DNA of 64,000 nucleotides from Urbifossiella limnaea (GCF_007747215.1 NZ_CP036273.1:992001-1056000), one strand, 5' to 3'; shown: positions 12,438 to 48,901, counted from the first letter of the stretch. Notes: generated from the letters alone by a model not told the origin. Numbers and translations: made by a program.

Positions 12438-12460
12438 GTCGGTCAGCACTTTTGAGGTGC
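12438..12460 (+). repeat. Left inverted repeat of IS630 element
   Basis: GTCGGTCAGCACTTTTGAGGTGC, flanked outside by TA (12436-12437). It matches the reverse complement of 13629-13651 imperfectly. Confidence 0.8.
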
Positions 12461-13778: not shown

Positions 13779-13909
13779 GGTCACTGAGCGGGCCGCCGGC
13801 GAAACGCCAGCGTCCAGTCGTTGAGGTGCATGCCCGCCAGTTCGGGGGGCGGCGGGACCGGGTCCGGCGGGGCGAGCGGGACCGGGTCGGTGAAGTCCCG
13901 CCCACGGGA
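13779..13909 (-). pseudogene. C-terminal scrap of a TIR-domain gene
   Basis: The last 43 or so codons of a TIR gene, ending PPPELAGMHLNDWTLAFRRRPAQ and a stop. It matches the end of the Hsp70-TIR gene (37042-37172) almost base for base (only about ten differences by eye over 131 bp). Homology stops sharply at 13909, where a TerD-like fragment of the opposite strand begins. This is a remnant of a duplicated copy of the Hsp70-TIR locus. Confidence 0.75.
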
Positions 13910-14175
13910 GTCCAGGTGCTCAACAGCTTTACGGAGCAGCCGTACCGCGACCTGCCCGAGTGCTTTGCCGGGTGGATGGGCCGGGCGGAGCCGGCCTCCG
14001 GCGAGGTGTTCGAGCCGAAGACGGTGGTGGACAGGGTGGACGTGGCGGCGGACACCCGCATTTGCCTGGCGGCGGTGTTCGACCTGGTCGGGCGGGAGGT
14101 CATCTGGGCCGACATCGCCCTGAGCAAGCACCCGCGGTTCGCCAACCACGTCCGCGACAACCGGGCAAGGGCGCA
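13910..14175 (+). pseudogene. Internal fragment of a TerD-like gene
   Basis: In the plus frame it reads VLNSFTEQPYRDLPECFAGWMGR, then FEPKTVVDRVDVAADTRICL and VIWADIALSKHPRFANHVRDN. This resembles the C-terminal part of large TerD-related or RING-associated proteins of the MXAN_6230/SCO0854 type; that identification is from memory of the motif and is tentative. The piece has no start and breaks off at about 14170, where IS701-like sequence begins. A sister fragment covering the end of the same domain lies at 41003-41266. Confidence 0.55.
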
Positions 14176-17263: not shown

Positions 17264-17275
17264 GTGCGCCCTCGT

Positions 17276-17752: not shown

Positions 17753-17885
17753 GGGGCACCTCCAACGGGTTGGTGTCGGTCTCGGTCGATGATACCCGCG
17801 CCGCTGGCCGATCGAAGCTGAAAACACGATGATTGCCCCGCCGGCAGCGTAATCCCAACTGTCGGGCAAGAACCGGAGTCGGCCC

Positions 17886-18842
17886 GTGGCGGCGACGAAG
17901 AATGTGCTCAGCCCCGAGCTGTGCCGCACGTTCGTGGCCCTAGTCCGTCACGAAGGGTCGGTCACGGCCGCGGCGCGGGAGCTCGGGTTGAACGAGGCGA
18001 GCGTGTCGAAGCGTCTGCGCCCGCTGGCCCGCGGCTGCCCACCCGCGGTGCCGCGGCCGTGGCTGGCGAAACGCGGCAAGCGGTTCGTGACGACCGACGA
18101 GGGGCGGCGGATGCTCACCGCCGCGACCGAGGCCGCCGCCGGGTGGGACCGGTTTGCGGCCCTCGCCGCCGCCGACCGCGAGCCGGCGGTGACCGTCGCG
18201 TGCGGCCACGAGGCGGCGGGCGGGATCGTGCTCGCCGCCGCCGCCCGGTTCCGCCGCGAACACCCGGCGGCTGCAGTGCGCGTGGTCGTCGCGCGCGGCC
18301 GCGCCCGGGTCGAGGGCGTGGCCGTGGGCCGGTTCGACCTGGCGCTCGTGACCGACACCCCCGCCGCCGTGCGCGAGGTCGCCCGCCGGCCGGTATTGGT
18401 CGAGGCGCTGGCGGAAGACGAACTCGTCGCCGCGTGCGCGATCCGCTCCGACTGGGCCGCCGCTTTCGCCGACGCCGCGCGACCCGTCACCGCCGTCGAA
18501 GCGGTCGGCTGGACGCTCGTGCTTCCTGAGGGCGACTCGGCCGTGCGCCGCCGTTGGGACGAACTCGTCCGCCGCCGCGTCCCGACGGCGGCGCCTCGTG
18601 TGGCGGTGGAGGCCGGCGGGTGGCGCGTCCTGGCCGGGTACGTCGCCGCGGGCTTCGGCGTCGGGCTCCTCCCCCGGTCGGTCGCAGCCGGGCTCGGGGT
18701 GAGGGTGAGGGTGAGGGCGTTGGCGGCCGACCTGCGGCCGTCGAACCGGGTGTACGTCGTGCGGCTGGCGGACGCCGGCGAGCGGGCGGAACTCATCGAC
18801 GCCTTCCGGGCGGCACTGGGGGGCGCGGCGGGGCCGGACTGA
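17886..18842 (+). CDS. LysR-family transcriptional regulator
   Basis: The protein has 318 residues with a GTG start at 17886 preceded by CCGGAG. The N-terminal winged helix is clear: LCRTFVALVRHEGSVTAAARELGLNEASVSKRLRPL (residues about 11-48), then GKRFVTTDEGRRML. The effector domain follows from about 95 (VTVACGHEAAGGIVLAAAARFRREHPAA) and ends with LAGYVAAGFGVGLLPRSVA and an Arg/Ala-rich C terminus. Length is normal for the family. It lies between the leftward NUDIX operon and the rightward caspase/TIR operon, so it could regulate either; LysR proteins usually control the divergent gene. Its ligand is unknown. Confidence 0.85.
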   Translation: MAATKNVLSPELCRTFVALVRHEGSVTAAARELGLNEASVSKRLRPLARGCPPAVPRPWLAKRGKRFVTTDEGRRMLTAATEAAAGWDRFAALAAADREPAVTVACGHEAAGGIVLAAAARFRREHPAAAVRVVVARGRARVEGVAVGRFDLALVTDTPAAVREVARRPVLVEALAEDELVAACAIRSDWAAAFADAARPVTAVEAVGWTLVLPEGDSAVRRRWDELVRRRVPTAAPRVAVEAGGWRVLAGYVAAGFGVGLLPRSVAAGLGVRVRVRALAADLRPSNRVYVVRLADAGERAELIDAFRAALGGAAGPD

Positions 18843-18966
18843 CGGTGCCCGTTGGTTGACGTATCGCAGCGTGTCAGGCAACGAGGCGGAAACTCGCGTC
18901 AGCCGGCCGGCGGGTCGTGTACGATCAGTGGCGTGCGTCTCTCCCCGCACTCCCGGGAGTGAACCC

Positions 18967-23010: not shown

Positions 23011-23029
23011 GCCGCACCGGAGGCGACCC

Positions 23030-25018: not shown

Positions 25019-25045
25019 GGTGGGACGCAGATCGGGAGACGAGTG

Positions 25046-26710: not shown

Positions 26711-26740
26711 GCGGCTCGGCGGAACAACGGGAGGCTCGTC

Positions 26741-29700: not shown

Positions 29701-31753
29701 CGAGGTCCGCGAGCTGACCGACGCGAAGGCCACCCGGAGCGGGATCGTCGGCGCGCTGTACGAGGTGGCAAAGATCGCACGGCCGCAAGACGTGTTCGTC
29801 TTCTTCGCCGCCGGCCACGGCGCCACACTCGGCCAGCGCTACTACCTCCTCCCGCACGACTACACCGCGTCCGCCGACCGGGACGCCGACATCCGCCGCG
29901 ACGGCCTGTCGGTGGACGACCTCGCCGAGGCCGCGGCCCGCGTGCCGGCGCTGAACCGGGTGCTGATCTTCGACACCTGCCAGTCCGGCTCGGCGGTCGG
30001 GCTCGGCGGCGGGCCGGCGAGCGCGTTCGCGTTCCGCGGGGCGGTCGAACGGTCGGCGCGGTCGCAGGGGGTGCTCACGCTCGCCGCGGCGTCGGCGGCC
30101 GGGGCCGCGAACGGTGCGAAGGAGCTCGAACACGGCGTCCTCACCTACACGCTCCTCAAGTCGCTCGACCCGCAGAAGAACGACTACCTCGGCGACGCGC
30201 GGGTGGCGCGGAGCGGCCCGGTGGACGCCGCCGCCTGGCTCCGCTTCGCCCGCGACCACGCCCCGGGAGTGTGGGCCGCGTTCCCCAAGCCCGGCGAGCT
30301 GGCCCCGACCCCGCAGCAGGTGGTACTCGGCGGGACCGGCACCGGGTTCCCGCTCCTCACCGCGGGGGCCGTGGACGCGGACTCGGCGCGCCGCCTCCGC
30401 GAGGCCGCGGCCCGACAGGAGGCGGCCGCCGGCGAGGTGTTCGAGCGCCGGCTCGCCGAGCTGGAACAGGCCCGGGCGGTGAAGGACCAGGCGCGGGAGG
30501 ACGCGCTCGCGGCCGGCCGCACCGGCGTGCGCGAGACGCTCGCCGCGAAGGCCGCCGCCTTCGCGGCGGCGCACCCCGAGGCCGCCCGCCGCTACGCGGC
30601 CGCCCCCCCCGGCACCCGCGCCCACCGGTTCGCCGCGCCCGCCGGCAAGGCGGTCGAGGCGGTCGCGTTCCGGCCCGACGGGCTGCTCCTGGCGGCGACG
30701 GCCGACCAGGCGGGCGCCGCCGTCGCCCTCTGGGACGCCGACCGCGGCGCCGCGCTCGCCACCTGGGCCGACGTGCTCCCGTACCGGCCGGCGATCCGGT
30801 CGCGCGGGTTCAACGAGGCGCCCGCCCGGGTGCTGGCCGAGAACCCGGTCGGCTTCTTCGCCGCCGACGGGTCCGCGTTCCTCTCGACGATGCACAAGGC
30901 CGGGCCGACCGTGGTGGACACCACGACCCGCGCCGCCCGCCTCGCCCTCCCCGCCGTGAAGCCGGCCGCGACCGGGCCGGGCCTGACGCCGAGCCCGGAC
31001 CTGAAGTACGCCGTGGTCCCGTTCCTCGACCGGCAGGTGGTGTGGGACCTGACGACCGGGGCGCGCGTGCCGGGGGCGGCGGTCGGCGGCCTGTACGGGC
31101 GGCCCACGCCGGCCGCGTTCTCGCACCGCAGCGGCGAGCTCGCCGTCCACCCCGATTCGACCGCGGTCTACGAGGTCGCGACCGGGAAGGGGACGGCCGG
31201 GTTCGCGTCCCCGCCGGTGGCCGGGTTCACCCCCGACGACCGCCTTCTGCTCACCCGCGACGGGGCCAACCTGGTCCTGTGGCGCCGCACCGGCCTGGCG
31301 GAGCGGACGTTCGTCCACGAGGCGGGGGCCGTGAGGGCGTTCGCGTTCGGCCCGGGCGGTCGGCTCCTCGCCGCCGCCGGCGGGCAGTACGTCAGCCTCT
31401 GGGAGACCGACTCGGGCAAGCTGGTCGGCCGGTGGGCGGTCGAGGGGGACGACTTCCTCGCGTTCAGCCCAGACGAGGCCCGGCTGGCGACGGGCTCGCC
31501 GGCCGCAGTCGAGGTGTGGCGGCTCGACCCGGCCGGGCCGCACCCGGTGGCCGCCGTCGTGAAGCGGGCCGCGCCGCCGCCGCCCGCGAAGGGCGGGTTC
31601 GGCGGCCCCCTCGGCGGGCCGGGGTTCCTCGAGATGGGGCCCGGGTTCGGGCCGTTCGGCCAGCCGGGGCCGGGGGCGAATCCGCCGCCGCCGAACCCGC
31701 GCCCGATGGAACGGGCGCCGCAGCCGTTCCCGTTCCCGCCCCAGCCGCGGTGA
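26741..31753 (+). CDS. WD40-caspase-WD40 protein
   Basis: The protein has 1,670 residues. ATG 26741 is preceded by GGGAGG. It has an N-terminal hydrophobic anchor (residues 3-27), then about twelve WD40 repeats (90-780; HxNRVAGVAVSPDG, GTVRLWDADAGREL and similar). A caspase/peptidase C14 domain spans about 940-1180: LHAVVVGINQYPRGG, VFVFFAAGHGATLG with His1026, and VLIFDTCQSGSAVG with Cys1080, the catalytic pair. An Ala/Glu-rich coiled linker follows (1225-1290), then a second, more divergent WD40 array (about 1300-1610) and a Pro/Gly-rich tail. Peptidase C14 enzymes cleave after Arg/Lys or Asp. The beta-propellers probably recognise a partner and control the protease. Last gene of the tight run; inferred to be its execution enzyme. 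Confidence 0.9.
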   Translation: MPRAVLVTAAVVLVAAAGGLYLALRPIGGPGDAPAPEPAPVAVVAPAARPDPAPARRPMTIELVGQASTPANVPGAAPRPAAPPRMLTVGARVTAVAFHPTQPTELAVSTTTGEAVAWNLATGGRGRVLSKHAGQATAVAYSPKGETVLTAAGDRVKADLTPEEILKDVGEDDALEHVETERGVMIRNPGPSVGLSDMLRGDGRGDFSAILSEHATGKQLRRVVGHDAGVLAAAYAADGKRFATAAGDGKVVLWNAHTGRPVRDLVGHRGPVLATTFTPDGRRLLTGGIDRTAVLWDVAEGKPAVTLGGHANRVAGVAVSPDGLLAATGSVEQPTAETPAGRKESRYGKQHGTATLWDLTTGERVRGFVGHDHLVAALAFGPDGRVLVTGSWDGTAAAWEVHTGRRLAVFRGDGSPVDCVAVAADGSRLAFGTRGGKVFAHALPDRPAPDADAGMGDVVQAVAFSPDGTHLVTGSGDRFAANLWSLADGRLAHVFRGHTAAVPVVAFAPDGKTVLTGSLDHTAVLWDVRTGQPVRRLTGKTTHLPENPRLKTRAKTSYAGPLAGVTTGAFSPDGKRVYTGSQFYEELYGWDVATGAFSRVPPAGGLADTLGAVGVTPEGKTLFTAYAEGQVLLRTPAGATVAVLDPGDPGGRPWVNVAALSADGRWAVAAGLGGKVKVWDVVRRQARPDFAGHTKLVTAVAFSPDGRRLVTAAEDNAVAVWDVAGGKKTAALAGHTKPVHAAAVHPNGRLVVTAALDGTVRLWDADAGRELARLVADGGGLDWAVVAANDLFDGSAGGRRRLLGGPSGTVPLDRFRDLYRPGLLAELARGDLPGAAPAPAQAAPTVAVALAADPPAGLVALDVTVTDRSGGAREPTLLHNRVAAGTPANVLREGGVLRCRFELAPAPGLNHFEVRAATADGAVEGEPAGLTVQAAGPAARPRLHAVVVGINQYPRGGELRSLEFCAPDARAMAELLRLRPAAAYDPGEVRELTDAKATRSGIVGALYEVAKIARPQDVFVFFAAGHGATLGQRYYLLPHDYTASADRDADIRRDGLSVDDLAEAAARVPALNRVLIFDTCQSGSAVGLGGGPASAFAFRGAVERSARSQGVLTLAAASAAGAANGAKELEHGVLTYTLLKSLDPQKNDYLGDARVARSGPVDAAAWLRFARDHAPGVWAAFPKPGELAPTPQQVVLGGTGTGFPLLTAGAVDADSARRLREAAARQEAAAGEVFERRLAELEQARAVKDQAREDALAAGRTGVRETLAAKAAAFAAAHPEAARRYAAAPPGTRAHRFAAPAGKAVEAVAFRPDGLLLAATADQAGAAVALWDADRGAALATWADVLPYRPAIRSRGFNEAPARVLAENPVGFFAADGSAFLSTMHKAGPTVVDTTTRAARLALPAVKPAATGPGLTPSPDLKYAVVPFLDRQVVWDLTTGARVPGAAVGGLYGRPTPAAFSHRSGELAVHPDSTAVYEVATGKGTAGFASPPVAGFTPDDRLLLTRDGANLVLWRRTGLAERTFVHEAGAVRAFAFGPGGRLLAAAGGQYVSLWETDSGKLVGRWAVEGDDFLAFSPDEARLATGSPAAVEVWRLDPAGPHPVAAVVKRAAPPPPAKGGFGGPLGGPGFLEMGPGFGPFGQPGPGANPPPPNPRPMERAPQPFPFPPQPR

Positions 31754-31897: not shown

Positions 31898-32683
31898 GTG
31901 ACCGACGACCCAATCACCCGACCGCCGCCCCGCTGGGCGTGGCTTCGTGCCCTGGCGGACTGGTGCGAGCGGCGGAATAGCCCCCTGTCGCCGGCCGGGA
32001 TGTGCGTCGTGGGCCTGCTCGCGGGGTCGCTGTGTGGCGCGGCGATCTGGCTCCTGACCGACCGGGTCGGGTTGGCCCTCCTCGACGCCGCGATCGCGTT
32101 CCCCCTTCCCTGGGTCTGGCTCGAACTCCGGTACCGGGCGTGGCGGCGGCGGTTCGAGGCCCAACTCCCCGACGCGCTGGCGCTCGTCGCGAGCGCGCTG
32201 CAAGCCGGACACAGCCTCGCCGCGGGATTGACCGTCGTCGCGGAGGAGATGGCGCCCCCCAGCGCGGCCGAGTTCGGCCGGGTCTACGAGGAGCAGCTGC
32301 TGGGCGTCCCGCTGGACGAGGCCCTGACCGCGATGCTGAGACGGGTCGGCTCGCCCGAGCTGCGCCTGTTCACCGTCGCCATCCAGTTGCAGCGGAACTC
32401 CGGGGGTCAACTTGACCAGATCCTCGACCGGCTCGCGTCGCTCATCCGGGCCCGGCGGGCGACCCTCGGGTACGCCGCGGCGGTCAAGTCCGCGATGTTG
32501 TTCGACGCCCTGCTCGTGTCGTGTCTCCCGCCGGCGGCGCTCCTGATCGCCTGGCACGTCCGCGCGGACGCCGTCGTGCGACTCTGGGAGCCGGCCGACG
32601 GGGTCCGCCCCGGGGCCGTCGCCCTGGCCGCGTGGGGGGCGGGCGCGCTCTGGGTCGCGTACCGGGCGGCCCGCGACCGCTAA
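31898..32683 (+). CDS. TadB-like type II/IV secretion inner-membrane protein
   Basis: The product has 261 residues. GTG 31898 is chosen because GGGGGG precedes it and the longer frame from 31766 translates the repeat. Membrane helices lie at about 30-75 and near both ends of the C-terminal half (AMLFDALLVSCLPPAALLIAW; VALAAWGAGALWVAYRA). Between them is a T2SSF/TadB motif region: DALALVASALQAGHSLAAGLTVVAEEM, then FGRVYEEQLLGVPLDEALTAMLRRV and LRLFTVAIQLQRNSGGQLDQILDRLA. Such proteins form the platform of Flp/Tad pili. No other tad genes are in the window, so it is isolated. Its stop overlaps the convergent TIR-FGE stop by 4 bases. Confidence 0.85.
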   Translation: MTDDPITRPPPRWAWLRALADWCERRNSPLSPAGMCVVGLLAGSLCGAAIWLLTDRVGLALLDAAIAFPLPWVWLELRYRAWRRRFEAQLPDALALVASALQAGHSLAAGLTVVAEEMAPPSAAEFGRVYEEQLLGVPLDEALTAMLRRVGSPELRLFTVAIQLQRNSGGQLDQILDRLASLIRARRATLGYAAAVKSAMLFDALLVSCLPPAALLIAWHVRADAVVRLWEPADGVRPGAVALAAWGAGALWVAYRAARDR

Positions 32684-33996
32684 CCCGCCGCGGGGCCGCC
32701 GCCGGTGTCGCCCGTCGCCTCGGCCGCGCCGAAGCACACCCGGCAGCCGATCGTCTCGTCCTGGTAGCCCGGGGCGTAACTCAGCCGGCGGGCCGCGCGG
32801 CAGTGCCGCGCCGCGTCCTTCCAGCTCCCGCCGCGCAGGGTCCGGGACGACCCGTGGGCCGGCCCGGTGGGGTTCACCCCGCCCTTGAGCGGCCCGGCGT
32901 ACCAGTCCTGGCACCACTCCCACACGTTGCCGTGCGTGTCGAACAGCCCCCAGGCGTTCGGCGCGAGCCGGCCCACGGGGTGGGTGTGGCCCTGGCTGTT
33001 CCCCGCGTACCAGCCCGCGGCCGCCAGCGCCGGTTCCCCCTCCCCGGTGTGGTACGCGGTCGCCGCCCCGGCCCGACACGCGTACTCCCATTCGGCCTCG
33101 GTCGGGAGCCGGTACGGCCGGCCGTCGGACCGCCGCAGCCGGGCGCAGAACTCGGCCGCGGCGTCCCAGGAGAGCGACTCCGCCGGGTGCAGGTCGCCGC
33201 GGAAACGACTCCCGTCGGCGCCCATGACCGCACGCCACTGGGCCTGCGTCACGGGCGTCGTCGCCATGTAGAAGCCGGCCGCGATCGTGACCGGGTGTGG
33301 GCCCTCGGTGTCCCGCCGCCCGGGCTCGTCCGGCGGGCTCCCCATCCGGTAGTGGCCGGGCGGAATCCACACGAAGCGCATCCCGGTCGCGGTGACCACC
33401 TCGGCCGGGAGCTGGTGGAAGCTCGCCCACCGGAGCTGGCGCTCCCGCGCCTCCGCCGGGGCGGAGCCGGCGCCCGGCAGGGGCGCCTCGGGCCCGCGGC
33501 CGGCGGGGGCGCCGGGGACGAGCGCGAGCGCCGCCTCGACCCCCTGCACGACCCGGTCCACGTGGGCGGGGAAGTCGCGGCCGGCCCGCACCTCGATCGC
33601 ATTCCGCCGGGCGAGTGGCTGAAGGTCGGCCGGCAGGTCGGCCGCGGCCGGCATCGTGGCGCGGCCGGTCAGGACCGGGACGACCGGGATGCCCCGCCTC
33701 AGGGCGACGCCGACCTCGAGGCGGACGAAGTCGGTCGGGTCGTCGAGCCGCCGGGCCCCGGCGCGGGGTCCGTCCTCGAACGTCGCCCCCAGCCAGCCGT
33801 CCCCGATGACGGCCAGGAGGACGCCGCAGGACCGGATGTGGAAGTCGAGGTGCTCGACGAAGTCGGCGCCGGGGGGGATGGTGTCGATGTCCATGAACAC
33901 CGTCCCGGGGCCGAAGTGCTCCACCAGCCGGTCGCGGAGCAGGTGGGGGACGTAGGGGGTGTCGTTCCGCCGGTAAGAAATGAAGATCTGGGGCAC
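32680..33996 (-). CDS. TIR domain fused to FGE-sulfatase domain
   Basis: The product has 438 residues; GTG 33996 has GAGAGG upstream. Residues 1-130 are a TIR domain: IFISYRRNDTPYVPHLLRDRL, VFMDIDTIPPGADFVEHL, CGVLLAVIGDGWLG and DFVRLEVGVAL. The last includes Glu94 at the position of the TIR catalytic Glu, in an FxxxE rather than WxxxE context. Residues about 205-430 are a formylglycine-generating-enzyme-like domain: FVWIPPGHYRMGSPPDE, YRLPTEAEWEYACRAG, NVWEWCQDWY, RTLRGGSW. In true FGE a Cys follows GGSW; here it is GGSWKDAARHCR, so only one of the two active-site Cys residues is present, and the domain may act as a ligand-binding or substrate module. Convergent with the TadB-like gene. Confidence 0.88.
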   Translation of the reverse strand: MPQIFISYRRNDTPYVPHLLRDRLVEHFGPGTVFMDIDTIPPGADFVEHLDFHIRSCGVLLAVIGDGWLGATFEDGPRAGARRLDDPTDFVRLEVGVALRRGIPVVPVLTGRATMPAAADLPADLQPLARRNAIEVRAGRDFPAHVDRVVQGVEAALALVPGAPAGRGPEAPLPGAGSAPAEARERQLRWASFHQLPAEVVTATGMRFVWIPPGHYRMGSPPDEPGRRDTEGPHPVTIAAGFYMATTPVTQAQWRAVMGADGSRFRGDLHPAESLSWDAAAEFCARLRRSDGRPYRLPTEAEWEYACRAGAATAYHTGEGEPALAAAGWYAGNSQGHTHPVGRLAPNAWGLFDTHGNVWEWCQDWYAGPLKGGVNPTGPAHGSSRTLRGGSWKDAARHCRAARRLSYAPGYQDETIGCRVCFGAAEATGDTGGGPAAG

Positions 33997-34451
33997 GAGT
34001 ACCTCTCCCGCGCCTCGCCCCGCGGTAGGCATCGCTCCCCGGCGGCGGTGGCGATCGTGTCCATACTACTGGAACCCGGCCGGGCCGCACGCGAAACCGT
34101 GCGTGGCCTGGCGGGCCGAGTGTTCCTGCCCGTCGGACAACTTACCGCGGGCGGGCTCAAGCCAATTCGGGGTGTCGCGCCCGATGTCGTGCTTCGCCTT
34201 GGGAACGAAGTATCGCATCCCGGGAGGGACCTCGGTCTCAACGGGGTCGGTGACCCACACCCGGGCCGGCGAGGGCGCCTTGAAACGTCATTGAACTTCG
34301 GCCGTCACCGGTACATCATCCCACATAGCCTGGCGGGCGTGGCCCGGGTGGATTGGTTCCGTGTCTGCCCCACCGAGCGGACGAGGGTCGAGCGGTATTC
34401 CCGGGGGCCGTCACGGGCGGCGGAGAAGTCGAAGTCGCGACCGAGGCTACC
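33997..34451. other. Divergent intergenic region with a possible gene scrap
   Basis: About 455 bp between the TIR-FGE gene (leftward) and the zinc-ribbon/TIR gene (rightward). It must hold both promoters, but none is clear. On the minus strand 34260-34066 reads VWVTDPVETEVPPGMRYFVP and KAKHDIGRDTPNWLEPARGKLS, which looks coding and could be a fragment of a lost gene, though no family is recognised. Confidence 0.35.
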
Positions 34452-37013
34452 ATGACGCGCCCGACCTGCTCGTTCTGCGAGTCCGCCGTTCCCGACGGGG
34501 GTGGGTTCTGCCCGCGGTGCGGCGGCGAGGTTCCCGAGCACGCCGGGGAAACGCTCCTCCTCCTGCAACTCCAGGCGGTCCGGACGACGATTCGCGCCCG
34601 CGCGCTGGGGGTACTCGGCCCGGCGGTCCGGGCCGCGGCCGAATTGCTCGGCCGCGAGCCGGGGCTCGCGGCCCGCTGTGCGGACGCGCTCGTGTGGACC
34701 GGCCGGGAGGCCTTCCGGCTGCTCGACGAGGACGCGGGCCTGTCCCGCACCCTCCCGGCCGCCGAGCTGGTCGCCGGGCTCCTCCCCCCGACCCTCTACC
34801 CCGAACTCCGTACCCATGTGGCCGACCACCAGAAGGTGCGGGACGCCTTCGTCCGCGCCGAGGCCGGGTGGAAACAGGGCGGCCCGCCGTCGGCCCGGAA
34901 GGCGCGGGCCTGGTTCGACGCGCTCGCCGACAAGAGCGGGTTCGACCCGAAGGGGCTGCGGGCGTGCGTCTACGCCGCCCCGCACCAGTGGCCGACCGTC
35001 GCCGCGGCGCTCGACGCGGATGCGTTCGAGGCCGCCCGCGCGCTCCGGGAGGTCGCGGCCGGCGACGCCGAGTTCGCGCAGAAGAACTACGGCCGAGCGC
35101 GGGCGTGCTACGCGGCCGCCCGCAAGGCCGAGCCGTCGGCCGCCGCGGCCGACGGACTCGCCCGGTGCGCCGCCGCGACCGGCGACCCGGCCGGGGCGGT
35201 GGCGCACTCCCGCGAGGCCGTCCGCCTCGGCAGCACCGACCCGTTCACGTTCAACCGCCTCGCCTGGACGCTCTGCACCACCGGAACCCCGACGTCGGCG
35301 GGCGTGGGCGAGGCCGTCCGCGCGGCCCGCCGGGCGGTGGAGCTGGCCCCCGCGACCGCGGCGTTCTGGGACACGCTCGCGGAAGCCCTGGAGCGGGCGG
35401 GCGACCTGCACGGCGCGGCCGCCGCCGCCCGCGAGTCGCTCCGCTGGGGCCGCGGCAAGGACGCGTACCAGACCCGCATGGACCGGCTGTGCGCCCTGCT
35501 CCCCGCCCCCGCGAGCGACGACGAGATCGACCTGTCGGGCTCGCCGCGGGCTGGCGAGAACGGGGTCGAACTCGCCCGGCCGGCGGACAGCGGAGTTGCC
35601 CTCGGCCGGTCCCCGGGGGCGGACGACGGCGGCGACCTTGAGCTGTCGCTGGAGGCCGATTCGAGCGAGGCCGGGCCGGTATCGGCGAAGCCGAGACCGA
35701 CCCCGAAGCTGCCGGTCTCGTCCGACTCGGACAGCGAGTTCGAGCTCACCCTCGACGACTCGGCCGACGCGGGGAGCCTGGGCAACCTGGAGTCGGCGGC
35801 GCTCGACGACGAGGGGAAATGGGACAACTTCGAGACCGATTTCGAGATTCCCAACGTGTCGGACGAGTCCGGCTGCGAGGCCGTGGCGCGGGAGTCGGAC
35901 GCGGACTCGGAGGAGTCGTCCGAGGACATCGTGTTCGACGACGAGGACGGGGCGGGCGAGGACGACTCGTCCGCGAGCGGGGAGGCACTCCTGGCCGACG
36001 ACGAGGACGAAGACTCGCCCCGCGCGTCCATGAGCCGACCGCGACGGTCGGCCCGCGACGACGAGGCCGATGCCCGCCCGGCGAAGCCGACCGGCGGGTG
36101 GAGGACGCCGGCCGCCGGCGCGGCGAAGCCGACCGGCGGGTGGTGGGCGCGGCTGACCGGCCGCGGCGGACGCGCCGAGGTCCCGAAGCCGGCCACCGAC
36201 CAGGTTCACTTCTCGGTCACCGCCCCGGCGGTCATGCAGCCCGGCCGGGCCTACGTGATCGACGCCTGGGCCCACCTCGCGGCGCAGCGGCAGGAGGTAC
36301 TCGAGCGGGCCCGCGAGGCGCAGCGTGGCGGGCCGATCGCGTCGCGCACCAAGGGTGGTATGGAGGTCGCCCGCGGCACCACTGTCGCCGTACACCTGCG
36401 GGTGCCGACACTCGTGATCGACGACCCCGAGGACACGATCCTTTGGACCGGGGAGATCGGCAACGCGACGTTCCCCGTCCGGGTTCCGGCGAACACGCCG
36501 GCGGGGGCACAACCGGGCACGCTGCGGGTGTTCGCCAGCGGGCTGGAAGTCGCCAAGCTCCACTTCGAGCTGGAGGTCGGCGCGGCGGAGGCGCCGCCGG
36601 CGCCGGTCGCGGCGCGGGAGCGGCGGCACCGGACGGCGTTCGCGTCGTACGCCAGCCCGGACCGGGACGCCGTGCTCGCCCGGGTGCAAGGCATCCAGAA
36701 AGTGCTCCCGGATCTCGACGTGTTCGTGGACGTGGCCGCGCTGCGGTCCGGCGACCGGTGGGCGGAGCGGCTTGAGAAGGAGGTCGTCGGGCGGGACGTG
36801 TTCTACCTGTTCTGGTCGGCGCACGCCCGGGCATCGGACTGGGTCCGCCGGGAGTGGCAGACGGCCCTCGCGGCACGCGGCGTCGAGTACATCGACCCGG
36901 TCCCGCTCGCCCCGCCGGACCAGGTCGCGCCGCCGCCGGAGTTGGCCGCCCACCTCCACTTCAACGACTGGGTCCTGGCGTACACGCGCGGCCGCCCGAC
37001 GCCGCCCGGGTGA
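34452..37013 (+). CDS. Zinc-ribbon / TPR / acidic / beta-module / TIR protein
   Basis: The product has 853 residues; ATG 34452 is preceded by CGAGG. Residues 6-23 are a zinc ribbon (C6xxC9...C20xxC23). Residues about 40-350 are helical with TPR-like units (AQKNYGRARACYAAARKAEP; DPAGAVAHSREAVRLG; TAAFWDTLAEALERAGDL). Residues about 356-523 are highly acidic and Ser-rich, probably disordered. A beta-rich module at about 586-700 begins HFSVTAPAVMQPGRAYVIDAWAHL. The TIR domain is 727-853 (RTAFASYASPDRDAVL, DVFVDVAALRSGDRWAERL, FYLFWSAHARASDWVRREW) with Trp797 and Glu801 in the WxxxE motif linked to NADase activity. The beta module and TIR are paralogous to the end of the Hsp70-TIR protein next door. 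Likely cytoplasmic NAD-cleaving effector with a TPR sensor half; function inferred. Confidence 0.85.
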   Translation: MTRPTCSFCESAVPDGGGFCPRCGGEVPEHAGETLLLLQLQAVRTTIRARALGVLGPAVRAAAELLGREPGLAARCADALVWTGREAFRLLDEDAGLSRTLPAAELVAGLLPPTLYPELRTHVADHQKVRDAFVRAEAGWKQGGPPSARKARAWFDALADKSGFDPKGLRACVYAAPHQWPTVAAALDADAFEAARALREVAAGDAEFAQKNYGRARACYAAARKAEPSAAAADGLARCAAATGDPAGAVAHSREAVRLGSTDPFTFNRLAWTLCTTGTPTSAGVGEAVRAARRAVELAPATAAFWDTLAEALERAGDLHGAAAAARESLRWGRGKDAYQTRMDRLCALLPAPASDDEIDLSGSPRAGENGVELARPADSGVALGRSPGADDGGDLELSLEADSSEAGPVSAKPRPTPKLPVSSDSDSEFELTLDDSADAGSLGNLESAALDDEGKWDNFETDFEIPNVSDESGCEAVARESDADSEESSEDIVFDDEDGAGEDDSSASGEALLADDEDEDSPRASMSRPRRSARDDEADARPAKPTGGWRTPAAGAAKPTGGWWARLTGRGGRAEVPKPATDQVHFSVTAPAVMQPGRAYVIDAWAHLAAQRQEVLERAREAQRGGPIASRTKGGMEVARGTTVAVHLRVPTLVIDDPEDTILWTGEIGNATFPVRVPANTPAGAQPGTLRVFASGLEVAKLHFELEVGAAEAPPAPVAARERRHRTAFASYASPDRDAVLARVQGIQKVLPDLDVFVDVAALRSGDRWAERLEKEVVGRDVFYLFWSAHARASDWVRREWQTALAARGVEYIDPVPLAPPDQVAPPPELAAHLHFNDWVLAYTRGRPTPPG

Positions 37014-37043: not shown

Positions 37044-40000
37044 TCACTGAGCGGGCCGACGGCGAAACGCCAGCGTCCAGTCGTTGAAGTGCATGCCCGC
37101 CAGTTCGGGGGGCGGCGCGACCTGGTCCGGCGGGGCGAGCGGGACCGGGTCGATGAAGTCCCGCCCGCGGGTGTCCAGGGCGCACCGCCACTCCTGCTCG
37201 ACCCAGTACGACGCCCGGGCGTGCGTCGACCAGAACAGGTAGAACACGTCGCTCCGGGGGATCTCCCGTCGAAGGTCCGCCGCCCAGTCCCGGCCCGACC
37301 GGAGGGACAGCACGTCCAGGAACACGTCGAGCCCGGGGGCCGCCTTCTGGATGCCCTGCACGGCGGCGAGGACCGTGTCCCGGTCCGGGCTGGCGTACGA
37401 CACGAACGCACGCCGGTACCGCCGCTCCTCGGTCGCCACCAGAGCCGCCGCGCCGGCGGCCGGCCCGACCCGCAGCACGAACGAGACCCGCGCGACCTCC
37501 AGCCCGTCGACTCGAACCGACGCGACGCCCGCCCGCCCGCCCGGGGCGGCGTCGGCGGGCACCTCGACCACGAAACTCACGCTCCCGACGCTGCCGGTCC
37601 AGAGGACCGTGCCTTCCGGGTCCGCGACCGTCAGGCCGCTGATCCGAAGGGTGACGGTCAGGCTGACCCCGCGTGCGACCGCGACCGGCCCCTGCGTGCG
37701 GACCTGGATCGGTTCCCCGCCGGCCTGCTCCCGGGCGCGGGCGACGACCCGCTCCCGCTGCTCCTCCAGGTGCGCCCACACGTCTACCACGAAAACCGCC
37801 CCCGGCGGGACGGCCGGCGGCGCGGTGACGGAGAAGTGGACGTGATCCACCTGGTGGCCCGGGACGGCCTCCGAACAGTCCCGCGAGCTGCCGCCGCGCC
37901 CGCCCTTCGTGATCGCCTCCTGCACCGGCTGGATGTGCTGCTGGCTCACCGCCGCCATCTCCTGGAACGCGTCGTCGTCGTTGGACAGATCCACGCGCGA
38001 CAGCCTGCGGCTCGCCTCGTCCAGCTCGCCGCGGAACCGGACCTGGCGGTCTGCTGGGAGGCCGCCGAGTTGGCCGCGGCACTCCTGGATCATCTGGTCG
38101 AGCGCCAGCTTCAGCATCGGCGCCGGCGGCCGCTCCCGGCCCCCCGTCTTCCCGCCGCTGATCACGTCTTCCAGCTGGCGGACGAGGTCGGCGACCTTCT
38201 CGGCCACCCGGCCCCACGCCGGCTGGTCCGTCTGCTTGTACGCCCGGTCGGCCTCCGCCTTCGTCGCGTCGAGCGTCGCCCCGACCTTCTGGTCCTTCAG
38301 CGCCGGCTTCTTTGCCTCGGCCTTCGGCAGCAGGCTGCGGGCCTCGTCGAACAGCGCGTCCACCTCGGCCTTCGGCGGCACGAGACTGCCGCTCGCCGGC
38401 AGCGACTTCGTCAGCACGATCAGCTTCTTGAAGAGCATCTCGATCTGGACCTTCTCCGGGAACTCGGGCCGGAACAGGTCCTCGATCTCCGCTATGACCC
38501 GCTCGCACTCGGCGGCGATGCGCGCCTTCTGCGGCCCGTCCGGCACGTACGCCATCCGGCTCTCGAACCGCAATCGCTCCCGGGCGAACTCCGCCTTCAG
38601 CTCCTCCGGCGTCCGCACCGACGGCGCGGTAAACCGAACCTGCTGGGACTTGCGGATCGGCGTGTTCAGCACCGCGGCGGTCACCCGCATCGCGTAGTCG
38701 GCCCCGATCTCCAGCTCCAGTTCGACCTTGCTGTTGGCCGGTAGCGGGGCGCTGAACCCGTCCAGCTTGAAGGTGCTCAGCAGCACGTCCTCCTGGTACA
38801 GGTCGATCGTGATCTCGCGCATCTCCACCAGGGTCTTGAACGGCGGCGCCTTCCCCTTGAACGGCAGCGGCACCCCCTCGGCGGCGATGACGACCAGGCC
38901 CGACGCCGTGCCCACGGCGATCGGCTTGGGGAGGATGGCCTTCGGCGGCGGCGGCGGCGGGGCGGCGGCGGCGGCGGGGTGACGCACCCGGACCGTCTTG
39001 CGGAGCACCTCCGACCCGTCCGGCGCCGCCACCACCAGGGTCAGCTCGTTGTCCTCGCCCTCGATCAACTCCACCTCGACGAGGAACTTGCCGTCCGGCC
39101 CGGTCAGCCCGCGCCCGCCGCCGGCCGCCCCGCCGGTGACGGATACGCGGTAGCCGGCGACGGCGGTGCGGCCCTCACCAGGCTGCACCTGCCCGGTCAC
39201 CTGCAACAGCGGGTCGTCGGTCGTCTCGGGGATGTACGTCAGCGACACCCCGCCCTCGGTCGTACCGGCGATCACCGCCACCATCGCCGCCCCGACGGCC
39301 ACACTCAGGTCGAGCACGTCCTCGTCGATCTCCTCCGGTTCAAGGCCGAAGTCGGACGCCAGCCGCTCGCGCACCGCCGGCACCCGACACGACCCGCCGA
39401 CGAGCACCAGGCTGTCGATCGCCTCGCGCAGTTTGGCCCGCAGCGGCTCGGGGAGCGGGAGGGTGCTCCCCGCGGGGACGAGCTCGGCGGCCACCAGCAC
39501 GTCGAGCGTCTGCCGCATCGTGCGGGCCAGGTCCGGCTCGATCATTTCGAGGAAGTCCTTCCGCGTCAGCGTGAACGCGAGCTGGACCGACTTCGGCGGG
39601 GTGGAGTCGTCCTTGAACACGCCGGGGGCGCGGACGTCGGCCCTGAGGGCCTTCGACAGCCGCATCTTCACGTCCTCGGCGTGCCGCATGAGAGTCGCCC
39701 AGCGGGCGTCCCGCTCGGGCTGCTCGGGGTCGATGCGCAGGACGTACCCCATGTCGCGCAGCTCCTTGAGCATGCGGGTGGCGACCTTTTTGTCGAGGTT
39801 GTACCCGCCGAGTTCCCGGTCCCCGCCGAACCCGACCGGCCGGAACGCGCCGGCCGCGCGCTCGACCAGGGTGATGTCGAACGTGCCGCCGCCGAGGTCG
39901 TACACGAGCACCCGGAGGCGCGGGTTCGGCTTACCGTGGGTGAAGGCCATGGCGGCGGCGACCGGCTCCATCAGCAACCGCCCCTCGACGTTCAGCCCGG

Positions 40001-40430
40001 CGAGTCGGCCGGCCGCCTGCGTCCGCTCGACGGCCAGCCCGTCGAAGTACGCCGGGTGCGTCACCACCGCGTCGGTCACCTTCACCCCGAGGGCGTCCTC
40101 GGCGATCTTGACCATGTGGCGGAGCACCTCGGCCGACACCCGCTCGGGCAGCCACTCCTCGTCCCCGACGCGGGACAGGTGCTGCGTTCCCATGTACTTC
40201 TTGACGAACCGGACCGGAGTGACCCCTTCCGCCGCCAGCGACTCGGCTTCGTCGCCGACCTTTAGCTCGCCGTCCACCCGGCAGACCGCCGAGGCGTGGG
40301 TCAAGCGACCGAGGTCGTCGCCGAGGACGGTGACGGGGCCGAACACTTTTCCCTTGTCGGGGAAGCTGCCGGGGACCGCGACGACGCTGTGGGTAGTTCC
40401 CAGGTCGATGCCGACGACGACGCGTTCCAC
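37044..40430 (-). CDS. Hsp70 (DnaK-like) chaperone fused to a TIR domain
   Basis: The product has 1,128 residues from GTG 40430; the open frame extends to 40676 but the Hsp70 fold begins here (VERVVVGIDLGTTHSVVAV). ATPase motifs are intact: phosphate-1 GIDLGTTHS, connect/phosphate-2 VYDLGGGTFDITLVE (about residue 175), adenosine LVLVGGSCRVP (about 340). A substrate-binding-like beta part with an Ala/Pro linker (about 440-650) and a long helical region (about 660-860) follow. Then comes the HFSVTAPPAVPPGAVFVVDVWAHL beta module (about 867-980). The C-terminal TIR (1000-1128) carries FVSYASPDRD, VFLDVLSLRSGRDW and YWVEQEW, with Trp1076 and Glu1080 forming WxxxE. Coupling a chaperone ATPase to a probable NADase in one chain is unusual; a misfolded or foreign-protein sensor is the natural guess. 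A small partner gene lies 28 nt upstream. Confidence 0.9.
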   Translation of the reverse strand: MERVVVGIDLGTTHSVVAVPGSFPDKGKVFGPVTVLGDDLGRLTHASAVCRVDGELKVGDEAESLAAEGVTPVRFVKKYMGTQHLSRVGDEEWLPERVSAEVLRHMVKIAEDALGVKVTDAVVTHPAYFDGLAVERTQAAGRLAGLNVEGRLLMEPVAAAMAFTHGKPNPRLRVLVYDLGGGTFDITLVERAAGAFRPVGFGGDRELGGYNLDKKVATRMLKELRDMGYVLRIDPEQPERDARWATLMRHAEDVKMRLSKALRADVRAPGVFKDDSTPPKSVQLAFTLTRKDFLEMIEPDLARTMRQTLDVLVAAELVPAGSTLPLPEPLRAKLREAIDSLVLVGGSCRVPAVRERLASDFGLEPEEIDEDVLDLSVAVGAAMVAVIAGTTEGGVSLTYIPETTDDPLLQVTGQVQPGEGRTAVAGYRVSVTGGAAGGGRGLTGPDGKFLVEVELIEGEDNELTLVVAAPDGSEVLRKTVRVRHPAAAAAPPPPPPKAILPKPIAVGTASGLVVIAAEGVPLPFKGKAPPFKTLVEMREITIDLYQEDVLLSTFKLDGFSAPLPANSKVELELEIGADYAMRVTAAVLNTPIRKSQQVRFTAPSVRTPEELKAEFARERLRFESRMAYVPDGPQKARIAAECERVIAEIEDLFRPEFPEKVQIEMLFKKLIVLTKSLPASGSLVPPKAEVDALFDEARSLLPKAEAKKPALKDQKVGATLDATKAEADRAYKQTDQPAWGRVAEKVADLVRQLEDVISGGKTGGRERPPAPMLKLALDQMIQECRGQLGGLPADRQVRFRGELDEASRRLSRVDLSNDDDAFQEMAAVSQQHIQPVQEAITKGGRGGSSRDCSEAVPGHQVDHVHFSVTAPPAVPPGAVFVVDVWAHLEEQRERVVARAREQAGGEPIQVRTQGPVAVARGVSLTVTLRISGLTVADPEGTVLWTGSVGSVSFVVEVPADAAPGGRAGVASVRVDGLEVARVSFVLRVGPAAGAAALVATEERRYRRAFVSYASPDRDTVLAAVQGIQKAAPGLDVFLDVLSLRSGRDWAADLRREIPRSDVFYLFWSTHARASYWVEQEWRCALDTRGRDFIDPVPLAPPDQVAPPPELAGMHFNDWTLAFRRRPAQ

Positions 40431-40458
40431 GGGCGTGCACTCGGGAGAGGGGGTTCGG

Positions 40459-40923
40459 TCAACGCCGGCGGGAGCCTCCGATGCTGACGGCCGTCTCGGC
40501 CAGCAGCCGCTCCTTCCGGTAGATCGCGGGGCACTCGGTGTACGCGACGCGCGGCGGCGGCAGGTCGTCGCGGACCTGGAACCCGCGGACGTCCGCGGCG
40601 GCGCGCGTCTCGGCGGTCCACTCACGGCCGGCCGGGTCGTCGGCGCTGACGCCGAAGCCGGCGAGCAGCTCATCAAGGTCGACGCCGATCCGCCGCACCA
40701 TCTCGGCGGCCGCGACGGGAGTGCCGGCGTCCAGCTCCGTCCCGGCTCGCGCGACGTGGAACCGGGCCTGCGCCACGGCCCCGAGGATCCAGTCGAGCTG
40801 GGCGTGGTAGCCGTGACCGGCCTTGCCGAGCGCCTTGTGGACGAGGGAGGCCGCGTTGTCCGGCGCGGCCGGGTCGCGGAGGGGCCGCTCCTCGCACGGG
40901 ATCGGGATGTCGTCAGGCGTCAC
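40459..40923 (-). CDS. Small helical partner of the Hsp70-TIR protein
   Basis: A protein of 154 residues; GTG 40923 has GGAGG 7 bases upstream. It starts MTPDDIPIPCEERPL, then NAASLVHKALGKAGHGYHAQLDWILGAV and AAAEMVRRIGVDLDELLAGFGV, ending with a less ordered CPAIYRKERLLAETAVSIGG segment. No family is certain. Position directly before an Hsp70 gene, the size and the acidic/helical character would fit a GrpE-like exchange factor or a J-type cochaperone, but no HPD or GrpE signature is visible. Separated from the Hsp70-TIR start by 28 nt, so co-transcribed. Confidence 0.6.
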   Translation of the reverse strand: MTPDDIPIPCEERPLRDPAAPDNAASLVHKALGKAGHGYHAQLDWILGAVAQARFHVARAGTELDAGTPVAAAEMVRRIGVDLDELLAGFGVSADDPAGREWTAETRAAADVRGFQVRDDLPPPRVAYTECPAIYRKERLLAETAVSIGGSRRR

Positions 40924-45866: not shown

Positions 45867-47192
45867 TGGCACGGAATCCTGGCTCTCCCGGAATGCCATT
45901 AACTTGAGCCGGAACCCTTTGCGCCACAGGCTTTTGTCGGAGCTCCGCGCGGGGCCGAATCATGTACGGGTACTTCTTGGCCCGCCGCTTCTGACATTGC
46001 GGCTCGACGCGGTCCTTCCGGTCCGGATTCACGACCGAGTCCGGCAACGGCGTCCCCGGCGGGGACGATGCCAGCCACCGCAACGCATCCACGAAGCTGA
46101 TCCGCGCCGCCGGGACCTTCTGCCGCCGACCGGCTTCAAGCATGACCACCCGGACCAAGTTGTGGACCATGGCGAACGCGACCAACTCCCTCATCACGCC
46201 TGTCTCCGTCTCGCACTTGAGCGCGTCCATGCCGAGGGTCGTCTTCAGGTGGCCAGATCGGTTTCCACCTGCCACCGCTGGCGGTAGAGTTCGGCCAGCG
46301 CGCCCGCCGGGTACGCGTACGCCGTCTCGTCCGGCAACGTGCTGACCAGAGTGACGGTCCCCACCCGAAAGCCGGGTCGGTTCACGGCATATTGGGTTTC
46401 CCGGACGGCCAGCGTGACCGGCAGTGCCGCGTACGCCTCGGCGGTCATCCATGACTGCCGTTGGTACGGCTTGTACCATTCCACGACCTGGTCCGTCGGC
46501 CCCAAGTTGCGGACCCACCGGGAGCGGGTCTTGCCGGTGAGCTTGCCCGTGTTCCACCGGGGCGGCGGGGAGCGACCGGGGGTGAAGTCTACGACCCGTC
46601 GCTGGCTCATGCGGAACACCCCGTGCAAGCCGTGATCGACGAGGAAATACCGGTACGCGTACGTCCCGAAGGCCCGGTCCCCGACGAGGACGTCACCGGC
46701 GCGTAGTTCCGGGTGCAACCGGGTCACGTTCGCCATCTCTGCGACCGCAGCGGGGCTGTGAGGAACGACTGAAGGAAGCCCGTGCCGGCGTGGAAGAGGG
46801 CGAGGACGCGGGCGACCGGGAACCCGCAGCCGGCCGCTTGATTGGTCGGCTGGCCGAAGGCGCGTTGCAACCTTGGCGTGTCGGGTAGGCTCACGCCGGT
46901 GCCGTCGACGAAGCACGTCCGGTGCCCCCGCCAGAGGCCCTCGGCATCGACGGCCGGCCGGAGGGCCGCCGTGACCGACCGCAGGACGGCCAACGGCAGA
47001 CGGCCACGGGCCTGGCAGTATGCCGAAGCCGTGAACGGGCGGCCGGTCACGCGTGGCAGGTGGGCGCAGGCGGTGTTGCCGTGTAGGATCTGCAACAGGA
47101 AGACGTAGATGGTGGTGACCGGATCGAGGACGCGTTGCCGCCAGCGGACGTTCTGACCGCGACAAAGTTCGCCCACGTCGAGTGGCTCGAGG
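45867..47192 (-). pseudogene. IS4-family transposase remnant with two frameshifts
   Basis: Read on the minus strand from about 47192 the segments are, in order: EPLDVGELCRGQNVRWRQRVLDPVTTIYVFLLQILHGNTA, HRTCFVDGTGVSLPDTP with the first Asp, then after a frame change GDVLVGDRAFGTYAYRYF with the second Asp, and YRQRWQVETDL with the Glu. After another change LKTTLGMDALKCETETGVMRELVAFAMVHNLV and RISFVDALRWL follow. Each change is explained by one missing base, near 46741 (TCGCA-GAGATG) and near 46252. The ends are not defined: the right is cut by IS66 sequence and the left runs into the lipoprotein-like fragment. It is a dead copy. Confidence 0.75.
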
Positions 47193-48590
47193 GTGGCCGA
47201 ACTGTCGGCCAGGCTCGACGCGGCCCTGAAACACCGGTTCGGCCGCCGCCCGCCGCCGACAAGCCGAAGCGTCGGCGTGACGAGCACGGCCGCTCGCCGC
47301 TGCCCGCACACCTCGAACGCCGCGAGGTCGACCACGACCTGACCGCGGCCGAGCGGATGTGCCCGTGTTGCGGCCGGCCGCGGGCGTGCATCGGGGAGCA
47401 GACGGCCGAGCAACTCGACCTGGACCCGGCCACGTTCTTCGTCCGCCGCACCTTCGAGAAGAGCTACGCCTGCCGCACTGCGACCCCGCGGCCGTGCCGG
47501 CGGAGCAGCGGCTGGCGACCGCCGGCCCGACGCACGTCGGTCCGATCGCCAGGGGGTTGTGCGGTCCTGGCCTGCTGGCCCACGTCGTCATCGCCAAGTT
47601 CGCCGACCACACGCCCGTGCATCGACTGGCCGGCCAGCTGGCCCGGTCGGGTGTGACGATCGCGTCCGCGACCCTGGGCGACTGGCTCTTCGGCGCGTCG
47701 GAATTGCTGACCCCGCTGTACGACCTGATGCACGCGCGGGTGCTGCGGTCGCGGGTGACCCACGGCGACGACACCGGGGTGAAGTTGCGGGTGCCGGGGT
47801 GCCCCCGGACGAAGAAGGCCTACCTGTGGGCGTGCGCCGGCGACGCCGACTACCCGTACGTGGTGTTTGACTTCACGACCGACCACACGGCCGACGGGCC
47901 GACCCGCTTCCTCGCGGGTTGCAAGGGCTACTTGCAGGCGGACGCCCTGGCCCAGTACGAGGGTCTCTACGGCGACGACCGGGTGACGCACGTCTGCTGC
48001 GTGGCTCACCCCCGCCGCAAGTTCGCGGCCGCCGGTGAGGCCGGCGACACGCGAGCGGCGCGGGCGGTCGAGATGATCGGCCGGCTGTACGCCGTCGAGC
48101 GGGCGTTGCCACCGCTGCTGCCGCCGTCGGACGATCCGGTGCACCAGGAGCAGCGTCGGCAGCGGGAGGAGGAGCGTCGGGCGGTACGGCACCGCGACGC
48201 CGGGCCGGTGTGGGACGACCTGGAAAAGTGGCTGGAGCAGACGCGCCCGCTGGCGTTGCCGAAGTCGCCGCTCGGCGGCGCCATCGGGTACACGGTCAAC
48301 AACTGGGCGGCGTTGAAGCGCTACCTGGAGCAGGGGTACCTGGCGATCGGCAACAACCTGAGCGAACGCACGCTGCGGGCGATCGCGTCGGGTCGGAACA
48401 ACTGCGGCGTGATCGGGAGCGAGGTGGCCGGCCAGACGGCGGCGGTGCTGTACTCGATCGTCGGGACGTGCAAGCACCTGGGGATCGACCCGTTCGCGTA
48501 CCTGCCGGAGGCGCTGCCCGGGCTGTTCGCCCTGGGCGACAAGCCGACCGCCGAGGACCCGTCGAACTGGCTCCCCGACCGCTGGCTGCT
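47193..48590 (+). pseudogene. IS66-family transposase remnant with two frameshifts
   Basis: It opens at VAELSARLDAALKHRFGRRP (frame of 47193). After a one-base shift near 47255 it continues ADKPKRRRDEHGRSPLPAHLERREVDHDL, CPCCGRPRACIGEQ (the CxxC zinc site) and TFEKSYACR. A base is missing after 47476 (CGC-AC where CGCCAC is expected). The rest reads EQRLATAGPTHVGPIARGLCGPGLLAHVVIAKF, THGDDTGVKLRVPG, YLQADALAQYEGLY and NNLSERTLRAIASGRNN, the IS66 DDE core. The N terminus is missing about 60 residues. Dead copy; its left end abuts the IS4 remnant. Confidence 0.8.
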
Positions 48591-48901
48591 GAATCGTACT
48601 CGCGATCACCCATCCCGGCGGCGGTGGCCGGGTAGGCCACCACGCATCAGCTCACATCGAGCCTGCCGATCCCCGACGCCGGGGGACGCACCGCGTTACG
48701 CGCCCGCACCGACCTCGGCTCCGGGATGATACCCAACACGAATCCGTCTCGAACCGTGGGGCGCGACCGCGAAACTGGTGTCACAATCGGTGCCACTTCG
48801 GGTCTTGCTGACGCGCCGGGCCAGCGCAGGGCGCCGGGCCGGGCAAGGTTCTTTCCATTTTTCCTCCAGCGTAACGGTGTTCGCGTCATTATCTTGCGGG
48901 C
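48591..48901. other. Upstream region of the sigma/kinase pair
   Basis: About 310 bp between the IS66 remnant and the ECF sigma gene. No gene or clear -35/-10 pair was recognised. The last 40 bases (TTTTTCCTCCAGC... to ATCTTGCGGGC) are less GC-rich than the surroundings and probably hold the promoter of the sigma gene. Confidence 0.4.

What the first reader, a model, noticed from the sequence alone, without database searches (positions are those of the whole stretch)
37044..40923. Hsp70 chaperone fused to a TIR domain with a small partner gene
One protein carries all Hsp70 ATPase motifs and a C-terminal TIR with WxxxE (Trp1076, Glu1080). A 154-residue gene 28 nt upstream may be a cochaperone. 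Linking chaperone ATPase to a probable NADase suggests a device that destroys NAD when a particular misfolded or foreign protein is bound.
Basis: partly seen in the sequence, partly recalled or inferred. Interest (0 to 1): 0.8.

Follow-up and report, generated by a model that had tools for sequence, protein, structure and literature searches.

The report
Hsp70 chaperone fused to TIR domain
A planctomycete bacterium carries a single gene that joins a complete Hsp70-type chaperone motor to a TIR domain of the kind that destroys the coenzyme NAD, probably a suicide or immune device set off by misfolded or foreign protein, but only this one copy is known so far.

Summary
ORF 37044-40430 (-), GTG start, 1128 aa, has a complete Hsp70 ATPase domain (Pfam E=6e-56) with all catalytic residues (D9, K77, E155, D178, T183) and a C-terminal TIR_2 domain (E=5e-15) whose Glu1080 aligns with the catalytic Glu of SARM1. 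A 154-codon ORF ends 28 nt upstream; I could not show that it is a cochaperone. A whole, divergent Hsp70 (NBD, inserted beta domain, diverged SBD-beta, helical tail; stand-alone in other Gemmataceae) was joined end-to-end to a mobile 'beta-sandwich + TIR' module. The same module is fused to TPR (the convergent neighbour, 58% identical), kinases, STAS, vWA and a second TIR elsewhere in Planctomycetota; its catalytic Glu is invariant in 13 of 13. The gene lies in an apparent integrative island (tRNA-Phe, integrase, transposases) rich in conflict-system domains. No other Hsp70-TIR fusion was found in the relatives searched (119 with the full-length query) or in the literature held. Most likely: a chaperone-gated, TIR NADase-based abortive conflict protein, a new variant of known chaperone-thresholded conflict systems. 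Function, client and NADase activity are untested; the fusion is a singleton.

The parts
37044..40430 (-). Hsp70-beta-TIR fusion gene, GTG start, 1128 aa
   Evidence: Pfam HSP70 and TIR_2 in one frame; coding score and GC3; full-length self-hit in a one-contig genome
39267..40418 (-). Hsp70 nucleotide-binding domain, residues 5-388; catalytic residues D9, K77, E155, D178, T183 all present
38976..39266 (-). inserted beta-rich domain between NBD and SBD-like part, residues about 389-485 (fold inferred from sequence only)
   Evidence: collinear with stand-alone Hsp70s of three Gemmataceae; no Pfam family
38652..38939 (-). diverged Hsp70 substrate-binding beta domain, residues about 498-593
   Evidence: hhalign against canonical Hsp70 SBD-beta: probability 90%, E=1.5e-6
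37899..38651 (-). helical tail of the Hsp70 part, residues about 594-844; ends about where the stand-alone homologues end
   Evidence: alignment A2
37461..37847 (-). pre-TIR beta-sandwich domain, residues about 862-990
   Evidence: 58% identical module in neighbour gene; same domain, with or without TIR, in many Planctomycetota proteins
37074..37421 (-). TIR domain, residues about 1004-1119
   Evidence: PF13676; AF2 model with pLDDT about 47-71 for this part; fold matches to SPARTA, AbTir, SARM1, ThsB TIRs, Z about 10-11.6
37191..37193 (-). codon of Glu1080, predicted catalytic Glu (WxxxE with W1076 at 37203-37205)
   Evidence: aligned with the catalytic Glu of SARM1 by profile; invariant in 13 of 13 homologous modules
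40459..40923 (-). 154-codon ORF (GTG start), 28 nt upstream; putative partner, family unknown
   Evidence: coding score positive; no family; only a marginal 81-residue match, E=2.7e-4, outside its own genome
34353..37013 (+). convergent neighbour: TPR protein with a C-terminal copy of the beta-TIR module
   Evidence: PF13676 E=3e-11 and TPR; 57-58% identity over 282 aa
32680..34032 (-). third TIR gene of the cluster: TIR + FGE-sulfatase (FGS) domain
   Evidence: 3 of the 4 TIR_2 domains of the genome lie in this 8 kb stretch
13779..13916 (-). 138-nt, 95% copy of the 3' end of the fusion gene (remnant of a second copy or of recombination)

Best explanation
It is a one-polypeptide conflict (immune or suicide) protein. 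The Hsp70 part, an ATPase with a diverged client-binding half, is the sensor and threshold switch. The C-terminal beta-sandwich + TIR is an interchangeable NADase effector module. At rest, single molecules keep their TIRs apart. When several copies load onto an unfolded or foreign protein, or onto an aggregate, in the high-affinity ADP state, the TIRs are brought together, form the composite active site that TIR enzymes need, and cleave NAD+, so that the infected or damaged cell dies or goes dormant. Shown here: the fusion, the intact ATPase residues, the TIR fold and catalytic Glu, the modular origin, and the island context rich in conflict-system domains. Inferred: client binding, clustering, NAD cleavage, and a role against phage. 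The small upstream gene may help or restrain it; its role is not known.
For: HSP70 and TIR_2 in one open frame; all Hsp70 catalytic positions conserved; diverged SBD-beta detected. TIR Glu aligned with the SARM1 catalytic Glu, invariant in 13 modules; fold matches to NADase TIRs. The same module is joined to different sensor or regulatory domains: kinase, STAS, vWA, TPR, TIR. The vWA case parallels the published MoxR-vWA conflict systems, where vWA is the co-chaperone and carries TIR effectors (PMC7159879). Neighbouring genes have conflict-type domains: TPR-S, TCAD9, DUF4062, caspase-WD40, TIR-FGS, inside a stretch with tRNA-Phe, integrase and transposases. Canonical DnaKs are present elsewhere in the genome, so this copy need not be housekeeping. 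Precedent for chaperone-dependent phage sensing: DnaJ is needed by bNACHT25 (PMC12169576).
Against: Only one example known, so no conservation argues that the fusion itself is under selection. No biochemical data; the AF2 model is weak (mean pLDDT 46). No expression data or phage link. The SBD is so diverged that it may not bind peptides, and the hydrophobic NBD-SBD linker of DnaK is not visible by eye. No recognisable GrpE or DnaJ gene lies beside this gene.
Confidence: 0.5

Rival explanations
1. Guard of host proteostasis rather than sensor of a foreign protein: the Hsp70 part keeps the TIR module inhibited, and NADase activity is released when chaperone capacity is exhausted or the chaperone is attacked, in stress or in infection.
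For: Same anatomy. DnaJ-dependent activation of bNACHT25 was read by its authors as possible guarding of a host process (PMC12169576). SecB regulates an antitoxin in a three-gene TA system, as summarised in PMC7159879.
Against: No direct evidence; sequence cannot separate guard from sensor.
Confidence: 0.2
2. Chance product of recombination with no selected function: the TIR module of the neighbouring TPR gene, or of a related copy, was joined to a stand-alone Hsp70 and the fusion is transient.
For: Singleton; convergent neighbour with a 58% identical module, giving an inverted repeat with 408-nt arms; transposases and a decayed 138-nt copy of the 3' end.
Against: Frame intact over 1128 codons with uniform GC3; module paralogues only 58% identical, so the split is not recent; catalytic Glu and invariant residues kept in both; NG86 dN/dS about 0.54 over the module and 0.51 in the TIR, weak but in the direction of constraint.
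Confidence: 0.15
3. The TIR is a scaffold or signalling-assembly domain without NADase activity, and the protein joins an assembly with kinase-beta, TPR-beta-TIR and TIR-FGS proteins.
For: The beta domain also ends Gemmataceae proteins that lack TIR, which suggests a protein-protein interaction role; fold hits include adaptor TIRs such as MyD88 and TRIF.
Against: The Glu that is needed for catalysis is invariant in 13 of 13 modules, which adaptor TIRs need not keep.
Confidence: 0.12

Closest known systems
MoxR-vWA 'ternary' conflict systems with vWA-fused TIR effectors (Kaur et al. 2020, PMC7159879)
   Same: A chaperone/co-chaperone NTPase unit sets the threshold and the effector, often TIR, is fused to it; common in planctomycetes; a relative of the same beta-TIR module is fused to vWA in L092.
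   Different: Here the chaperone is Hsp70 and sits in the same polypeptide; no MoxR and no third component found next to it.
GAP1-N2 GTPase conflict systems with HSP70 and GrpE genes (Kaur et al. 2020)
   Same: HSP70 is a component of a predicted conflict system, with GrpE and DnaJ.
   Different: There HSP70 is a separate gene beside a GTPase and FNIII proteins; here it is fused to the TIR and no GTPase or FNIII gene was seen nearby.
CoCoNuT Type III systems with Hsp70-like CnuD/CnuCD (PMC11090510)
   Same: Hsp70-like NBD/SBD built into a predicted defence protein.
   Different: CnuD ATPase motifs are degenerate and RNA binding is proposed; here the ATPase residues are intact and the effector is TIR, with no McrBC.
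TIR NADase effectors with other sensors: SPARTA (TIR-APAZ/Ago), TIR-STING, Thoeris ThsB, SARM1
   Same: A sensor part controls a TIR with a catalytic Glu; fold and Glu match.
   Different: None of these uses an Hsp70 as the sensor or switch (own knowledge).
Stand-alone Gemmataceae Hsp70 variant (L039-L041, L110)
   Same: Same order NBD, beta insert, SBD-beta-like, helical tail; collinear to its end.
   Different: No TIR; in L109 it is followed by TPR genes and a true GrpE (PF01025 E=1e-10).

Membership tests
Hsp70 (DnaK) family | actin-like NBD with phosphate-1, phosphate-2 and catalytic Lys/Glu/Asp/Thr | tested here: met
   PF00012 E=6.3e-56; D9, K77, E155, D178, T183 align with the DnaK positions
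Hsp70 (DnaK) family | SBD-beta/SBD-alpha client-binding half joined by a conserved hydrophobic linker | tested here: inconclusive
   SBD-beta-like domain at 90% hhalign probability, but Pfam's match stops at residue 387, a beta domain is inserted, and no canonical linker was recognised
TIR NADases | TIR fold | tested here: met
   PF13676; top fold matches are TIR domains, Z up to 11.6, though the model is of modest confidence
TIR NADases | catalytic Glu in the WxxxE-type helix | tested here: met
   E1080 aligned with the SARM1 catalytic Glu, invariant in A4
TIR NADases | NAD+ cleavage | not testable with these tools
   needs an enzyme assay
GrpE or J-domain cochaperone (for the 154-aa ORF) | recognisable GrpE or DnaJ domain | tested here: inconclusive
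   no hit in Pfam, NCBIfam or PADLOC; hhalign score to GrpE reached by 1 of 60 shuffles and 8 of 100 for the C-terminal part; AF2 pLDDT 39
MoxR-vWA ternary conflict system | adjacent MoxR AAA+ and vWA genes | tested here: not met
   none among the neighbouring genes scanned
GAP1-N2 GTPase conflict system with HSP70 | adjacent TRAFAC GTPase and FNIII-repeat genes | tested here: not met
   none among the neighbouring genes scanned
CoCoNuT | McrB-type GTPase and McrC homologue | tested here: not met
   none among the neighbouring genes scanned
Thoeris | ThsB TIR with a ThsA effector gene | tested here: inconclusive
   ThsB models match the TIR weakly (E=6.9e-6) and far below the NCBIfam cut-off; no ThsA among the genes scanned

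The most novel reading that the evidence does not exclude
The first known enzyme in which an Hsp70 cycle directly gates a TIR NADase: a bacterial immune receptor that reads protein misfolding or foreign folding intermediates as the danger signal.
Probability: 0.3. Interest if true: 0.85.

Novelty: new variant of a known kind. Interest (0 to 1): 0.57.

Why it matters
Chaperones are suspected sensors or threshold-setters in bacterial immunity, but mostly through separate genes. A single polypeptide that holds both the Hsp70 motor and a probable NADase makes the link directly testable: one protein, one NAD assay, with point changes in either half. The wider family found here (one beta-TIR module carried by Hsp70, vWA, TPR, kinase, STAS and TIR partners) is also a ready series for asking how different inputs switch the same effector.

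Tried and rejected
Scan of 84,980 species' genomes for relatives of the full protein: no confirmed hit; with the three-row module alignment only the known Gemmataceae kinase-beta-TIR locus, because the tool's patterns were few. AF2 of the small protein alone: pLDDT 38.9, not usable, so not fold-searched. Small protein as GrpE by blastp, phmmer and hhalign: not significant. Diversity-generating retroelement linked to the TIR-FGS gene: an RT is present at 8670-9971, but no template/variable repeat pair of 60 nt or more was found. Second tRNA-Phe 3' end as att site: none in the window. Papers naming a Hsp70-TIR fusion: none; Hsp70, TIR domain, GrpE and conflict systems together: one paper. Plasmids: one module relative, a cyanobacterial TIR protein near caspase genes, no Hsp70.

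Full report
Observation. Reading from the GTG at 40430, one open frame runs to 37044 on the - strand, 1128 residues. Pfam finds HSP70 over the first 387 residues (E=6.3e-56) and TIR_2 over about 1009-1119 (E=4.8e-15). W1076 and E1080 are as stated, and GC3 stays between 0.89 and 0.98 in every 100-codon block, including the junction. The window lies in a one-contig 7.8 Mb genome. The host is Gemmataceae-like: a genome of the same family, G038, is the record titled 'Gemmataceae bacterium'. The 154-codon ORF 40459-40923 ends 28 nt before the start.

Anatomy of the Hsp70 part. The ATPase residues known from DnaK are all present: D9, K77, E155, D178, T183. The match to Pfam's Hsp70 stops at the end of the NBD. 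Comparison with stand-alone Hsp70s of other Gemmataceae (L039, L040, L041) shows that the next 450 residues are collinear with them to about their end: an inserted beta domain, a diverged SBD-beta (hhalign probability 90%, E=1.5e-6 against canonical Hsp70 SBD-beta), and a helical tail. So the fusion is a whole Hsp70-type protein with something added after its natural C terminus. This variant is rare: 8 of 95 genomes of the family have a match, five with it in a long frame, this one included, and none of 391 others drawn evenly from the phylum. In a relative (L109) the gene is followed by two TPR genes, a small gene and a true GrpE (Pfam E=1e-10); L108 has the same order. In this genome another Hsp70 has DnaJ-like and GrpE genes just upstream.

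Anatomy of the TIR part. The last 283 residues are a beta-sandwich of about 130 residues plus a TIR. The convergent neighbour 34353-37013 ends in the same module at 58% identity. In wider searches the module turned up behind or between protein kinase (L044, L088, L094), STAS (L091), vWA (L092), TIR (L089) and unassigned N-termini. The beta domain alone also ends several Gemmataceae proteins, kinase-like by eye, that have no TIR. The TIR Glu is invariant in the 13 modules aligned, and a profile of them aligns it with the catalytic Glu of human SARM1 and matches Cat1, a CRISPR-associated TIR. A three-sequence AlphaFold2 model is weak overall (mean pLDDT 46), moderate in the TIR (about 47-71), and its best fold matches are TIR domains, SPARTA, AbTir, SARM1 and ThsB among them. 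The geometry of the NAD pocket cannot be judged from this model.

Rarity. A full-length query against 119 relatives gave no second Hsp70-TIR fusion (only the best six candidates a genome were scored, but an orthologue would rank first). Family, phylum and class searches with the module or the Hsp70 tail gave none either. No paper in the held library names such a fusion. This is absence in what was searched, not proof of uniqueness.

Context. Three of the four TIR_2 domains of the genome sit in genes within 8 kb here. Nearby genes carry TPR-S, TCAD9, nucleotide cyclase, DUF4062, caspase plus WD40, and FGE-type (FGS) domains, several of them domains named in work on conflict systems. A tRNA-Phe at 1751-1824 is followed by a tyrosine integrase, and transposases flank the region, as expected of a mobile defence island, although no second att site was found in the window. 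A 138-nt, 95% copy of the fusion gene's 3' end lies at 13779-13916, followed at 14103 by a 60-nt copy of sequence upstream of the small gene, perhaps the scar of a second, lost copy.

The small gene. It looks coding by codon statistics but matches nothing known. A by-eye likeness to the C-terminal part of GrpE did not hold up against shuffled controls and its model is unusable. I treat it as a partner of unknown nature.

Mechanism. My best reading is a chaperone-gated TIR NADase in a conflict system: client-driven clustering of the Hsp70 part brings TIRs together and NAD+ is cleaved. What is shown is the fusion, the residues, the modularity and the setting. What is inferred is client binding, clustering, NAD cleavage and the anti-phage role. 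Published parallels are chaperone-thresholded conflict systems with vWA-TIR fusions (PMC7159879) and DnaJ-dependent phage sensing by bNACHT25 (PMC12169576). That TIR enzymes need association to be active is established for SARM1, SPARTA and TIR-STING (own knowledge; PMC9402430 was found, but only the start of its abstract was read).

Verdict. Real, well delimited, and not an ordinary gene. It is a new variant of a known kind rather than a new category, with the strong caveat that it is a singleton with untested activity.

Noticed in passing
window 1751-3107: tRNA-Phe followed by a tyrosine integrase (PF00589), with transposases at 5100-6458, 12446-13141, 46248-47774 and 47494-48726: probable integrative island.
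   Followed up: partly
window 13779-13916 and 14103-14162: 95% copy of the last 46 codons of the fusion gene, then a 93% copy of 60 nt from upstream of the small gene; looks like the scar of a lost second copy.
   Followed up: partly
window 14601-31753: Run of conflict-type genes: TPR-S, NUDIX+TCAD9, TPR, TPR-S+nucleotide cyclase, DUF4062, and a 1670-aa WD40-caspase protein.
   Followed up: no
window 8670-9971 and 32680-34032: Reverse transcriptase and a TIR-FGS gene in one island; FGS domains are known DGR targets, but no template/variable repeat was seen.
   Followed up: partly
L112:6262-7263 and L113:6542-7444: Proteins of about 300-330 aa that hold only the inserted beta domain and helical tail of the Hsp70 variant, without NBD or SBD; L112's is next to a large TPR gene.
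   Followed up: no
L122-L143 (many Gemmataceae): The pre-TIR beta-sandwich occurs without TIR at the C terminus of kinase-like proteins, so it is a general planctomycete module with no Pfam family.
   Followed up: partly
window 53171-64000: Very large ORF (over 3600 codons, running off the window) with tandem repeats of about 950 and 288 nt, some copies 97-99% identical.
   Followed up: no
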